Of a stretch of DNA of 46,579 bases, positions 772 through 7,700 are shown piece after piece. The notes beneath the pieces are model-generated. The model was given only the letters and a program-made list of their open reading frames with translations. It had not been told where the DNA came from and ran no database searches. The position numbers and the translations under genes are program-made. The stretch is from Muribaculaceae bacterium (GTDB taxonomy: Bacteria > Bacteroidota > Bacteroidia > Bacteroidales > Muribaculaceae). The stretch is from the NCBI GenBank assembly GCA_017619355.1, contig JAFZSO010000011.1, forward strand, positions 1 through 46,579. Reading direction: 5' to 3'. How positions within the stretch are numbered: position 1 is the first letter of the stretch; every line of letters starts with the position of its first letter.

Positions 772-774
772 TAT

Positions 775-976
775 CACGTAGTTTGACAGTTATGGGCAGA
801 AAAACGGCTGCCGTTATCCCGTCGTCAAACTACGTGAATCTACCCCGAAGAGCATATATCACTGGATAAGGCAGCCGTATGGATTTGGCTGGTTTGGGCT
901 ATAAAAAAAGCCCACCGCAATGTAACGTGAGCAATATCCGATGCTCGACGGGTGGATTCAATCCACGTAGTTTGAC
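775..976 (-). promoter_or_regulatory. Structured 5' leader with mutually exclusive pairings (candidate attenuator or riboswitch)
   Basis: Read on minus, the element GTCAAACTACGTG occurs at 976..964 and again at 787..775, four bases before the ATG at 771. Its exact complement lies between them at 836..824. The middle copy can therefore pair with the first or with the last copy, not both. The first pairing extends to about 22 bp (976..950 with 846..824, one 4-nt bulge) and would close a domain holding three hairpins: 946..942/933..929, 913..909/900..896 and 891..887/876..872. Downstream, 815..811 and 807..803 form a small stem followed by T residues at 802..800, a weak terminator. A second competing pair, 878..870 with 812..804 (9 bp), would break that stem. 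The predicted TSS coincides with the first copy. No folding program was run. Confidence 0.6.
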
Positions 977-981
977 GGGGA

Positions 982-1012
982 CAAAAGTATAACAAAGTTT
1001 TGACATGGCAAA
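982..1012 (-). promoter_or_regulatory. Minus-strand promoter for the leader and small membrane-protein operon
   Basis: TTTG at 1012..1009, 19 bases, then TACTTTTG at 989..982 matches the Bacteroidales TTTG/TAnnTTTG consensus. Expected transcription start is about 975, the first base of the structured leader. It lies 15 bases from the divergent plus-strand promoter. Confidence 0.75.
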
Positions 1013-1027
1013 ATATTTTCAGCATTA

Positions 1028-1058
1028 TTTGCTGTTTGACAACAAAAGAGTAACTTTG
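1028..1058 (+). promoter_or_regulatory. Plus-strand promoter for the tandem structured RNA
   Basis: TTTG at 1028-1031, 19 bases, then TAACTTTG at 1051-1058 is a full Bacteroidales consensus promoter. No plausible open reading frame follows; the transcript from about 1065 enters the tandem RNA and stops at the terminator at 1454-1480. Confidence 0.8.
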
Positions 1059-1159
1059 CAGCGTCAGACGGTTCCGGAGAGGTGGGCATACCGCCACCGG
1101 ATTTCGGCCTTTAAGTAGGTACGGGCTGACCGTGGGAGAGTGGTATGCCCATGTCTCTC

Positions 1160-1472
1160 AAGGTAATGGAAGTCTATTGGGATTGGGCGACCACGCCTAC
1201 CCGACTTCGCCAGTTTTTTATGCTGGGGCTTCCACATCGACGGCAGGTGAGTCCTGGCCATCACTCTCAAGGTAATGGAAAGTCAACGAGTGGGGCGACC
1301 ACGCCTGTTCGTATTCGTCTGTTTTTACAGAGGCTTTCCACATCGACGGCAGGTGAGTCCTGGCCATCACTCATAAGGTAATGGAAGTCTGTTGGTAGGG
1401 GCGACCACGCCTGATTGACTTCGCCTATCTTTGTATAGGGGCTTCCACATCGACGGCAGGTGAGTCCTGGCC
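1160..1472 (+). repeat. Three tandem RNA units
   Basis: Units span 1160-1259, 1269-1365 and 1375-1472. Each begins AAGGTAATGGA and ends with CACATCGACGGCAGGTGAGT followed by CCTGGCC. The joints, ATCACTCTC and ATCACTCAT, are almost the same, and the sequence before unit 1 (GCCCATGTCTCTC) looks like a diverged joint. The middle of each unit varies in sequence but keeps its stems. Confidence 0.9.
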
Positions 1473-1480
1473 GTTTTTTT
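1454..1480 (+). terminator. Intrinsic terminator formed by the last repeat unit
   Basis: CGGCAGG (1454-1460), loop TGAGT, CCTGGCCG (1466-1473) with one bulged G, then seven T (1474-1480). The same hairpin ends units 1 and 2, but those copies are followed by ATCAC and should not terminate. The T run overlaps the stop codon of the convergent gene at 1479. Confidence 0.9.
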
Positions 1481-2021
1481 ATAAGTTTCTTCTATGTATA
1501 TTGCCACTCTTGCCTACAACAATGACATGTTTAATTCTTGCTCTAGCACGTGCAGGAGATTTTTCTATAAATTTTCCAACTTGTTGATCAACATATTCTC
1601 TTGTCATTGCTTTAGTTTTTTGAATAAGCACAACAGTTTCAACCCCTTGTTTTGATGCTTTTTCCATAGCAGTTTTAATTGTATTGTTTCCTGCTTTGCC
1701 TATAGATTTCATATCCATGGGTGATTTATAAAGCCTACCATCTTTTGTTTTACCTCCGCTTATGGTGCTTTTTTCACTATCTAGATACACCTTATATCCC
1801 TTTTGTGCAAGCTTTTTCCCTGCAGATAATTCATCTTTATTAATGTTGTGTTGATTATGAACCACCATAAATCCTCCGCTCTTGTCAAAATAGGAATTCT
1901 TGCGATCGTAATCTCCTGCCCCCATCAGTTTGTCATATTCAGATCTACGGTTGCCTAGTGTCCCTGGCTGCTTCGCATAGTTACGAGTACCACCGCTCGT
2001 TTTATCTCCATTACCGCTCAT
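1479..2021 (-). CDS. Small CdiA_C-like nuclease-toxin candidate in prophage (180 aa)
   Basis: The first 55 residues are polar and Gly/Asn/Lys rich. From about residue 56 the pattern (NINKDELSAGKKLAQKGY, then DGRLYKSPMDMKSIG, NTIKTAMEKASKQGVETVVL, and a final IKHVIVVGKSGNI) resembles the CdiA C-terminal tRNA-nuclease fold, in which an E-helix, a D...(D/E)-x-K strand and a terminal IxxVIVV strand form a PDDEXK-like core. Here D-M-K fills the D/E-x-K position. In phages such domains are often fused to Mu gpF-type minor head proteins; here it stands alone. The start at 2021 overlaps the upstream DUF4417 gene by 11 bases, so they are co-expressed. No obvious immunity gene follows; instead the tandem RNA converges on its 3' end. 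Function is inferred from pattern, not shown. Confidence 0.5.
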   Translation of the reverse strand: MSGNGDKTSGGTRNYAKQPGTLGNRRSEYDKLMGAGDYDRKNSYFDKSGGFMVVHNQHNINKDELSAGKKLAQKGYKVYLDSEKSTISGGKTKDGRLYKSPMDMKSIGKAGNNTIKTAMEKASKQGVETVVLIQKTKAMTREYVDQQVGKFIEKSPARARARIKHVIVVGKSGNIHRRNL

Positions 2022-4749: not shown

Positions 4750-7700
4750 TTAGTACGGAATTTCCTGCTGTTTTGGTTCTGGTCTCGGCTCCTCGAGGTC
4801 ATCTTCCACACTGCTTGTCACTATTTCAAGATTGATGCCATAGTTATCTCGCACCATTTCATAGTCAAAGCAGTATGCGCGGTCAACGCTATCGGTATTT
4901 TTAACCTTGTCATTACCGAACTCGTCTTTTTCGACTGTGACCTCATGTCTGCCATCAATGATATTCTTGAAGCGCACGGAGCGTTTAAGACCGATATATT
5001 CTTTTGAGTTCTCAAGGTAGTATGCAAGCGTTTCGGCTGGCAAAACAGTGTCGCCAACCAATTTGCCGAATCGTTTGTAGAGCATGAAGATGCGATTCTT
5101 ACGAAGCAGCAGCACCGGTCGTGCCCTGGTCCATTCGATAACATTGGTTGTGTCGCATTTGAAACGAGAAACATATCTGATTTTGAAGTCGCTGTCCTGG
5201 TATATTTGCCCATCTTGCTGCAGGAATGCCACCATGTTCCAGAAGTTGGCGAGTTCATTGCTTGATTTGCACTCGCTGTTCTGCATCAGCACATGATCAA
5301 CGCAAATCTTCAGCAGTTCACTGTACTCCAGCGGCAGGTCAAGCACACCGCTGAGTGTGCGGAAAGCTGCCAATGGTACGCACCAGTTGCGAAGAATACG
5401 GTCTTGAATGTCCTCGTTGCGAGTATTCTCCACGAGGTCGCTAAGCGCTGTGTTGTAATTGCCAACAAACTCAGCCTCGAACTTGGCTCGATGTCTAAGA
5501 ATTTGCAGCGTCAAGTGTGACAGACCTCGTTTCCGGATCTCTTTCAGTTCCTCAAACTTGCGCTTCGCTTCCTCGCTGAAAACGCTTTGGTTGAATGTGA
5601 GGAATATCACACGAGTGAACAATGCGATATCAGCGGTTGGCATTTCCTGGCCGCTCAGAATAACACCGCAGTCAACTGATGTAATTTCGCGCTTCCTTTC
5701 CTCCCAGTTCATACGGCTGCGACCGCTGCCGTCCCACAAACCTTTCAGAAACTCTATCTTCAAATAGTCGATGCTATTTTTGTATTCATCAATATGCACC
5801 AGGGCATTGGCGCATTGAGCTACGATTTCGCCCATTGCCGGAACGGTAGAGTTTTGAATGTTAGGCGGTGTGTTGTCGATGATAAAGAAGCTCATCAGCG
5901 AATGGCCTAATTCACTCTTACCTGAGCCAACAGGACCAAAGAGGTTGAGAATAGGGAATGCTTTGGTGAAGCCAGCCACCACGTCGCGGAACAATGTGGC
6001 GAGTAAAAAGCAAATACCGACTTTGGCATTATCGCCAAACACGTCAATGAGCTTTGTGGTATAGTCTTGTAGGGATATACCATTCAAGGCCAGATGAACG
6101 AACTGCCTCTCAAAGGCGAAATACTTTTGGTTGTCTCGATAGATTTTGCTGTTCGACGGCAAGTAGTAGTTGCCAAGCTCGTCGCCTAATCTCACAATGC
6201 CATAGTCATCGGTTGTGTACCAATTACCGTTATAGAAACAACCATTACCAAAGGCAAAGAATCCTTTACTTTGCCACCCAAGCTGTGTAATCTCCACAGC
6301 GGTTTCTGTCTTCTCGTATAAGTACATTTTCAATTTTGTTAAGTGTTCCTCCTTGGCTAACCAAATGAAGTTGCCAAGGCCCTCTATTCTTTGTTTGAAC
6401 TTGCTAAGAGAGGAAAGTTCCTCTTGTTTAAGTTCTATGATTTCAGTAAGACCTCTATAATTGGTGATACGGTAGAGTCGTTTAGGCAGCAGTGGGTCTT
6501 TGATATGGAACATTGGTTCCATTATGAAGTTGCTCCACTGGTACTCGCCATCCTTTCCGATTGACCAGTAGCAGAGGCCACTTTCGTAGAACCCATATTT
6601 AGCAAGCAGCTCCTTGTTGAGCATCTGCGCCTTGTCAGCCGAAACTTTTTCTTCTTTGTTCGCCTTACGAGCAGCCGAGAGTGCCGACTTCCACAATGCT
6701 TTGTCGGGATATAATTTTTGCAGTTGCTTCAAAAGCATCTGCACCTTTACATTGTCAAGAATGAGTGCTAACAGGTTTGTCAGCTCATTCACTACGGCAC
6801 TCTTAGCTTCTACAGTTTCGCAAGGCTCAAAAAGAATCTCTGCATACCAAACTATAAAGTCTTTTTCCTCGATGGATGATAGTACAGCGCCGCTGGTGAT
6901 GTAGCTGTCTGGGTCACGTTTCTCGTCCGGATCTGCAGGAATCTCTTTTACCGTGACACCCAACCCAGCTTTCAGTGCAATCATACCATTGGCGCACACG
7001 AACTTCTTCCCTGCACCCATCTTCTCGCCGTTCTTTGGCGGGTCTGCGTCAGGAATGAAGCAAACCCTGTTGGCGTGTTTGTGCAGCTGCTCGAAATGCG
7101 CTGCGCTCCATGCGCCGCCAAGAGATGCTACCGTGTTGGTTATGCCTATGCTTTGAAGCTTGATAACATCAGGCGCACCTTCAACAAGGTAAAATCTATC
7201 TTCTTTGCGTGCTGTGGTTATGGCGTTGTCGATGCCGAAGATAGTTTCTTTCTTCTCATAGATAACGCTTGTTGGGCTGTTTATATACTTCGCCTTACTT
7301 TCACCCAATGCGCGAGCGGTAAAGCCGATGATTCGCCTAAACCGGTCACGGATGGGTATCATCAGGCGGTCACGGTAGAAATCATAGATCTCATCGTGAT
7401 CACCTTTGCGAAGTAAACCGAGCTCTATCATCAATTCAATGGGCTGACCGGCCTTTTTCGCTGCCTGGTAGAGCGAGTCACGCACTCCATCAGCGTAGCC
7501 AATGCCATTCTCGGCAACATATTCAGCGCCCCAACCACGACTTTCGACGGCATAGTTAAGTGCAAACTTGGCTTTGTCGTTGTCTTCTGTGATAGCGTTG
7601 ACGTAGAATTGGCCAGCCCATTGGTTAATGGCAAGCATCGCTTCACGCTTTAGCTGCGCCTGTATTTCTTCTGCTGTGCGAACATCGCGTGTTTCTTCAA

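What the first reader, a model, noticed from the sequence alone, without database searches (positions are those of the whole stretch)
1028..1480. Unrecognised noncoding RNA made of three tandem structured units
Seen: a full promoter, no plausible coding frame, three units of about 107 nt and an intrinsic terminator. The variable hairpin changes both arms together in all three units (CCAG/CTGG, TCTGT/ACAGA, CCTAT/ATAGG) and the outer stem lengthens on both sides in unit 2. That is internal compensatory change, which strongly favours RNA structure. The invariant parts (the ACCA-loop hairpin and the TGAGT-loop hairpin) look like repeated protein or RNA binding sites, so the array could act as a multivalent scaffold or sponge. 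I cannot match it to a named phage RNA.
Basis: partly seen in the sequence, partly recalled or inferred. Interest (0 to 1): 0.88.

Follow-up and report, generated by a model that had tools for sequence, protein, structure and literature searches.

The report
Phage array of swappable small RNAs
The window holds what looks like a real non-coding RNA gene of a Bacteroidales phage, built of one leader RNA and three copies of a second folded RNA, and both parts also occur singly in related phages, where one fixed promoter slot carries different small RNAs from phage to phage.

Summary
Each unit folds as a three-way junction plus a 3' hairpin. Across 8 distinct units, 98.8% of cells pair and 9 of 33 pairs change on both sides; slid controls give 0-1. 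Rfam has nothing. (1) The unit is an independent sRNA: single copies with their own promoter and terminator lie in two other phages or prophages. (2) The 'leader' is another sRNA that stands alone in a third phage. So the window gene is a concatenation whose inner terminators are lost. (3) Both RNAs occur in one promoter slot, divergent from a PLD-like gene. Of 47 close relatives held, 32 carry an insert there, in 15 sequence clusters (one codes for protein) with at most short similarities between clusters, although the PLD genes are up to 97% identical. This looks like a pool of exchangeable phage RNAs. I infer a trans-acting role by structure, most likely counter-defence or host takeover; that is not shown. 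No target was found: no convincing antisense match, no verified CRISPR-repeat match, no neighbouring toxin common to all loci.

The parts
1028..1058 (+). promoter of the RNA array (TTTG-N19-TAACTTTG)
   Evidence: pattern match, 12 in window against 0.69 expected; a -7-like box also precedes the homologues
1061..1158 (+). leader module, C-type sRNA, here without its terminator
   Evidence: standalone homologue in the slot of L084 (73% identity over 98 nt; G078 copy 95% to L084); fold z -3.94
1159..1259 (+). A-type unit 1 (three-way junction + 3' hairpin without T run)
   Evidence: CM R1 74.4 bits; pair counts
1269..1365 (+). A-type unit 2 (subtype shared with the single-copy loci; used to build R1)
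   Evidence: CM R1 115.9 bits, by construction; 91% identical to the L006 unit
1375..1480 (+). A-type unit 3 including the terminator
   Evidence: CM R1 74.3 bits
1454..1480 (+). 3' hairpin of unit 3 (loop UGAGU) + T7 = intrinsic terminator; units 1-2 have the same hairpin without the T run
   Evidence: sequence, folds
982..1012 (-). divergent promoter of a second putative small RNA
   Evidence: pattern match
903..976 (-). putative second small RNA (ends approximate), ending in hairpin + T7
   Evidence: sequence; fold of 899-985 z -2.6; no homologue in the loci held
1479..2021 (-). convergent CdiA_C-like gene (180 aa); neighbour, not part of the RNA
   Evidence: PF18451 E 2.3e-5, 24.9 bits, below the 26.6-bit cut-off

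Best explanation
The region is a phage cargo gene for trans-acting structured small RNA. One housekeeping-type promoter drives a ~416-nt transcript made of four RNA modules: one C-type leader and three A-type three-way-junction units. The first three modules have no working terminator, so only the last one stops transcription. The modules belong to a pool of exchangeable phage sRNAs that otherwise sit one at a time behind a fixed promoter, in a slot opposite the late genes. Shown by sequence: modularity, single-copy relatives, conserved pairing with changing helix sequence and constant loops, unrelated inserts in the same slot of close relatives. Inferred: expression, including in the lysogen; action through shape and invariant loops on a protein or RNA rather than by long antisense pairing; and purpose, most likely neutralising a host or competitor-phage defence factor or otherwise reprogramming the host, with the tandem copies giving dose or several variants at once.
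For: Single A units with own promoter and terminator in L006 and L043; fused arrays in window and G078 with unit subtypes in different order and a swapped P3 hairpin; C module alone in L084. Covariation. Slot: 32 of 47 loci with a PLD-like protein >=81.8% identical carry an insert, 29 of 32 with the -7 box at the same offset from the PLD start (script index 13); in 8 of the 15 without insert the two genes are directly adjacent, with room for a stop codon only. 15 clusters, one coding (L164, 123 aa). Slot RNAs of L095, L097, L100 are no more alike than shuffles although their PLD genes are 97% identical in DNA. 13 of 16 slot RNAs folded have z <= -2. A second, E-like RNA in L043 keeps a hairpin through CCGAA/UUCGG -> CCGAU/AUCGG. 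R1 finds no relative outside the known loci in 101 genus, 397 family and 374 order genomes, with filters that lose weak matches.
Against: No transcript data. No target found. Three of 16 slot RNAs do not fold clearly better than shuffles (B_L083 z 0.41, C_L084 0.21, E_L087 -0.70), although the C-type in the window does (-3.94). One slot holds a protein ORF (L164), and one I-type insert (L094) has a 76-aa ORF that 0 of 100 shuffles reach, though its relatives L093 and L099 do not (34 and 17 of 100). Five of 45 cross-type pairs share short stretches above at least 99 of 100 shuffles, so clusters are not wholly independent. One covariation measure of five does not exceed shuffles. The counter-defence purpose rests only on analogy with variable phage cargo loci. 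The A family is rare (3 of 101 genus genomes plus one virus contig).
Confidence: 0.55

Rival explanations
1. RNA anti-CRISPR (Racr-like): the modules mimic, or pair with, CRISPR repeats, and the slot varies because hosts carry different CRISPR types.
For: Known Racrs are phage-borne, often follow a promoter and stand alone (passages of PMC10651486).
Against: No Rfam match and none inside a slot (that Rfam holds CRISPR-repeat families is recalled); the recalled repeat was not found in the library's texts; the matches to u1, u3 and L095 are antisense; no CRISPR-like array in held loci other than the RNA array itself; R1 finds nothing else in 101 genus genomes. Host repeats themselves were not available.
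Confidence: 0.12
2. RNA antitoxin for the adjacent CdiA_C-like gene (type III-like toxin-antitoxin pair).
For: In the window and twice in G016 an sRNA lies convergent to the 3' end of a CdiA_C-like gene.
Against: G078 and the slot phages have the RNA without such a gene beside it; an A and an E-like RNA sit beside different CdiA_C genes of one prophage; the candidate RNA beside the CdiA_C-like gene of L033 does not fold better than shuffles (z 0.31). In type III systems the RNA precedes the toxin in one operon (recalled); here it is convergent.
Confidence: 0.1
3. Antisense regulator or superinfection-immunity RNA acting on the phage's own transcripts (P4 CI-like, recalled).
For: Immunity specificity would explain sequence turnover in one slot. 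Two RNAs exceed their shuffle maximum: L084 (12 nt against 10) and L095 (13 against 12; the match lies in the convergent phage gene).
Against: For the other 37 of 39 RNAs tested the longest perfect complementarity to the held parts of the same phage is within the range of 20 shuffles. Only parts of most phage genomes were tested. Covarying helices argue for shape.
Confidence: 0.1
4. Host-directed base-pairing sRNA like Bacteroides FopS/GibS.
For: The FopS sequence has been reported in a Caudovirales phage (passage of PMC11697453); same host order.
Against: FopS is a single-stranded 5' stretch with a seed plus terminator and was deposited in Rfam; the window RNA does not match Rfam and has little single-stranded sequence.
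Confidence: 0.13

Closest known systems
Racr / solitary repeat units (RNA anti-CRISPRs)
   Same: phage-encoded short structured RNA behind its own promoter
   Different: no repeat identity shown; 14 non-coding sequence clusters in one slot; three-way junction longer than a CRISPR repeat (recalled length)
FopS/GibS sRNAs of Bacteroides
   Same: Bacteroidales-type promoter, intrinsic terminator, multicopy family, one phage occurrence reported
   Different: no single-stranded seed stretch; structured junction; no Rfam match
ToxI and other type III antitoxin RNAs (recalled)
   Same: tandem structured RNA units ending in a terminator
   Different: no toxin gene downstream in the same operon; units ~107 nt, single-copy forms exist
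Variable cargo hotspots of P2/P4 phages (title and abstract start of PMC9122126 seen)
   Same: variable cargo at set places of related phages
   Different: here the cargo is in 14 of 15 clusters RNA-like, not protein-coding

Membership tests
Any Rfam 15 family | covariance-model match at gathering score | tested here: not met
   Searches (window; 18 slot loci): 0 matches; 900-1600 at E <= 5: 0; 14 slot loci at E <= 1: 3 matches, all below gathering score and outside the slots
Racr (RNA anti-CRISPR) | similarity to the host's CRISPR repeats | tested here: inconclusive
   only two recalled repeats compared; host repeats not available; recalled repeat not found in texts
Racr (RNA anti-CRISPR) | stand-alone phage RNA behind a promoter | tested here: met
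   (promoters by sequence only)
Racr (RNA anti-CRISPR) | inhibits CRISPR interference | not testable with these tools
   needs an infection assay
Type III toxin-antitoxin | tandem RNA repeats upstream of a ToxN/CptN/TenpN-type toxin in one operon | tested here: not met
   next gene is convergent and CdiA_C-like; no such toxin among the 10 window proteins scanned
FopS/GibS sRNA | single-stranded 5' stretch with conserved seed, then terminator (Rfam family) | tested here: not met
   no Rfam match; fold; definition from passages of PMC11697453
P4 CI-type immunity RNA | complementarity to a leader of the same phage | tested here: inconclusive
   2 of 39 RNAs exceed their shuffle maximum, in partial genomes

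The most novel reading that the evidence does not exclude
Bacteroidales temperate phages keep a dedicated promoter slot for interchangeable, structured, protein-free RNA effectors: an RNA counterpart of the protein anti-defence locus, with many unrelated RNA folds. Some phages fuse several into one multi-module transcript, as in this window.
Probability: 0.35. Interest if true: 0.92.

Novelty: new variant of a known kind. Interest (0 to 1): 0.78.

Why it matters
RNA effectors of phages are known from few cases (recalled). A fixed slot that swaps unrelated structured RNAs among otherwise very similar phages gives a ready-made collection (14 non-coding clusters here) for finding RNA inhibitors of bacterial defence or host functions, and a simple rule for finding more: look opposite the PLD-like gene. 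It also explains the window's tandem array as a fusion of members of that pool.

Tried and rejected
Coding reading: rejected; unit spacing is 106-109 nt and no ORF is kept at full length in G078. tRNA/tmRNA: none in the window. Annotated phages and plasmids: no DNA match; PLD-like protein: no match in annotated phages. Exact-pattern scans: one search gave L006; one search gave 5 genome loci, of which 2 are the known relatives and 3 look like chance by eye. Looser scans found no new A member (0, 14 and 28 loci; only L006 real; R1, best E 0.66). CdiA_C protein in virus contigs: none. L033 candidate RNA beside a CdiA_C-like gene: rejected, z 0.31. I-type slot RNA (L093) in 101 genus genomes: none. 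C type: 2 of 101 (the window and G078). E type: 2 of 101, one a 25-nt match at a contig edge. Antisense to own phage: 2 of 39 above shuffles. CRISPR mimicry: not established. Search for more slots by the other flanking gene: 9 loci, all on contigs already held. R1 was built from unit 2 and three homologues, so their scores are by construction; window units 1 and 3 and G078 units 2 and 3 are independent. Slot counts: 3 of 110 loci were dropped for a missing gene start or edge; the 60 loci below 81.8% identity were not classified, although some gave promoter-pattern hits and one of them (L186) shows a similar promoter and hairpin. The script's expression missed the promoter of L093 and L099 and took a wrong box in L103; I counted all three as carriers (looser expression and eye). 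The 32 carriers were listed by hand. Clusters were joined at blastn E <= 1e-3 and >= 35 nt. The 32 inserts contain 27 distinct sequences, so some loci may be one phage sampled twice.

Full report
What is there. The window's left part is phage-like (primase, DUF4417); the contigs of its two closest relatives at this locus are titled uncultured Prevotellaceae and Porphyromonadaceae. At 1028-1058 a Bacteroidales-type promoter (consensus recalled) reads right; 12 such sites occur in the window against 0.69 expected. The predicted transcript runs through a structured leader (1061-1158, z -3.94) and three units spaced 106-109 nt, and ends at a hairpin followed by T7. The whole 417 nt folds better than all 100 shuffles (z -3.32); the single units only moderately (z -1.70 to -2.34). 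Rfam has no match.

Structure. Each unit has an outer stem P1 closing a three-way junction: P2 with an invariant GGGCG-ACCA-CGCC top, a UUCG-containing linker, and a variable hairpin P3. A 3' hairpin P4 (loop UGAGU) follows. On 8 distinct units of four loci, 98.8% of 260 cells pair; 9 of 33 pairs and 23 cells change on both sides (0 of 500 shuffles reach 23 cells, 3 of 500 reach 9 pairs), while slid controls give 0-1 pairs and 39-51% pairing. One measure, further pair types, does not exceed its shuffles (18 against a mean of 19.0; 447 of 500 at least as high). P2 top and P4 never vary and so say nothing for or against pairing there. The alignment was fitted to the model. RNAalifold on the unfitted MAFFT alignment gave 8 compensatory pairs in P1 and P2 but no P3, because P3 is misaligned there.

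Single-copy relatives. The unit exists alone, with a promoter box directly before it and a terminator behind, in virus contig IMGVR_UViG_3300026549_002532 (L006 about 6774-6887) and in genome G016 (L043 about 1765-1651, minus). G078 has the same leader + three-unit array (80% identical), but with the unit subtypes in order B-A-C instead of A-B-C, and with the third unit carrying the P3 of another subtype. The match between the two arrays starts in the promoter and ends at the T run; the flanks differ. In G078 the array abuts a DUF4417 gene matched only to residue 53. Searches with the covariance model R1 found 3 of 101 genus genomes, 3 of 397 family genomes and, in 374 order genomes, only the window's own; these used stricter filters.

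The leader is another sRNA. Relatives of the gene beside the single unit in L006, a 172-aa PLD-like protein (weak Tyr-DNA phosphodiesterase match, E 0.026; HKD-type motif recalled), gave the best 80 of 155 virus loci and matches at E <= 1e-20 in 76 of 397 family genomes. In L084 the place of the unit is taken by a standalone copy of the leader (95% identical to G078's, 73% to the window's). So the window gene is one C-type and three A-type modules in a row. The first three modules lack the T run that ends the single-copy forms (sequence).

The slot. Of 110 PLD-bearing loci held, 3 were dropped for edges. Of 107, 47 have a PLD protein >=81.8% identical to that of L006. Of these 47, 32 carry an insert opposite the late genes; in 29 of 32 the script finds the -7 box at the same offset from the PLD start. 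Of the 15 without, 8 have the two convergent genes directly adjacent, with room for a stop codon only, and 7 have 46-94 nt there. The 32 inserts (27 distinct) form 15 clusters at the cut-off used. One cluster (L164) is a 123-aa ORF; among the 26 other distinct inserts only L094 has an ORF (76 aa) that no shuffle reaches, and it is not kept in the related L093 and L099. L095, L097 and L100 have 97% identical PLD genes but slot RNAs no more alike than shuffles; over 45 pairs of ten types, 5 pairs score above at least 99 of 100 shuffles. One of these is an 18-nt identical stretch of E and K types. Of 16 slot RNAs folded, 13 have z <= -2; B_L083, C_L084 and E_L087 do not. Within clusters of two or more distinct sequences, the I, G, D and J alignments contain 10, 4, 1 and 2 compensatory pairs, while B, K, M and N have none; I, G and K also have 13, 5 and 2 pairs with a break. 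None of 18 slot loci has an Rfam match. G016 carries a second RNA-like stretch whose first 42 nt match the E type (86%), with a compensatory CCGAA/UUCGG to CCGAU/AUCGG change.

How it most likely works. Shown: discrete, movable, structured RNA modules behind promoter boxes, found in these searches in phage or prophage-like contexts, and unrelated inserts at one site of close relatives. Inferred: the promoter is of the housekeeping type and points against the late genes, so the RNA is probably made in the lysogen. The mix of changing helices and constant loops suggests recognition by shape and loops, most simply by a protein, rather than long antisense pairing; a search for complementarity in the held parts of the same phages gave two short excesses in 39 RNAs. 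Replacement of unrelated effectors at one site is how phages are known to carry anti-defence and host-takeover cargo (recalled). I therefore favour a counter-defence or host-takeover RNA (about 0.4 for counter-defence itself; about 0.9 that this is a trans-acting RNA cargo gene). The tandem form would supply several variants or more dose.

Rivals. An antitoxin for the neighbouring CdiA_C-like gene is suggested by three convergent pairs (window, two in G016), but the RNAs occur without such genes elsewhere. Antisense immunity and FopS-like regulation are weaker.

Known or new. Papers were searched for phage or prophage small RNAs of this kind; the listings showed nothing describing it. Passages of PMC11697453 and PMC10651486 were seen, not the whole papers. 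The library lacks most subscription papers, so absence is not proof. I rate it a new variant of a known kind: a phage cargo locus, but with RNA cargo.

Noticed in passing
window 903-1012 (minus): A second promoter back to back with the first and a ~75-nt RNA-like stretch ending in hairpin + T7; it contains CGTGGATTGAA, like the end of type I-C CRISPR repeats (recalled).
   Followed up: partly
window 774-787, 823-839, 961-977: Three copies of CACGTAGTTTGAC in both orientations, up to 17 nt, flanking 36- and 121-bp stretches; possible inversion or operator sites.
   Followed up: no
L043 1109-1651 and 2978-3487: Two CdiA_C-like genes in one prophage (the first 81% identical to the window's; the second by Pfam), each with an RNA-like gene convergent at its 3' end.
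   Followed up: partly
L164 1091-1462 (minus), slot: The promoter slot holds a 123-aa ORF, membrane-like by eye, instead of an RNA.
   Followed up: partly
L083, L162, L163, slot: B-type RNA has GUCAAAA/UUUUUGAC and CGUAGC/GCUACG in the order of an H-type pseudoknot (by eye).
   Followed up: no
L093, L097, L099, slot: I-type slot RNAs of 240-310 nt are themselves multi-domain, with two similar hairpin domains in L093 (fold).
   Followed up: partly
L095 and L170, slot: J-type RNAs share an identical 3' half including the terminator but have a different 5' hairpin; 13 nt of the L095 RNA are complementary to the convergent phage gene.
   Followed up: partly
L042 10346-10717: A PemK/MazF-like toxin gene lies about 1.5 kb from the RNA array of G078.
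   Followed up: no
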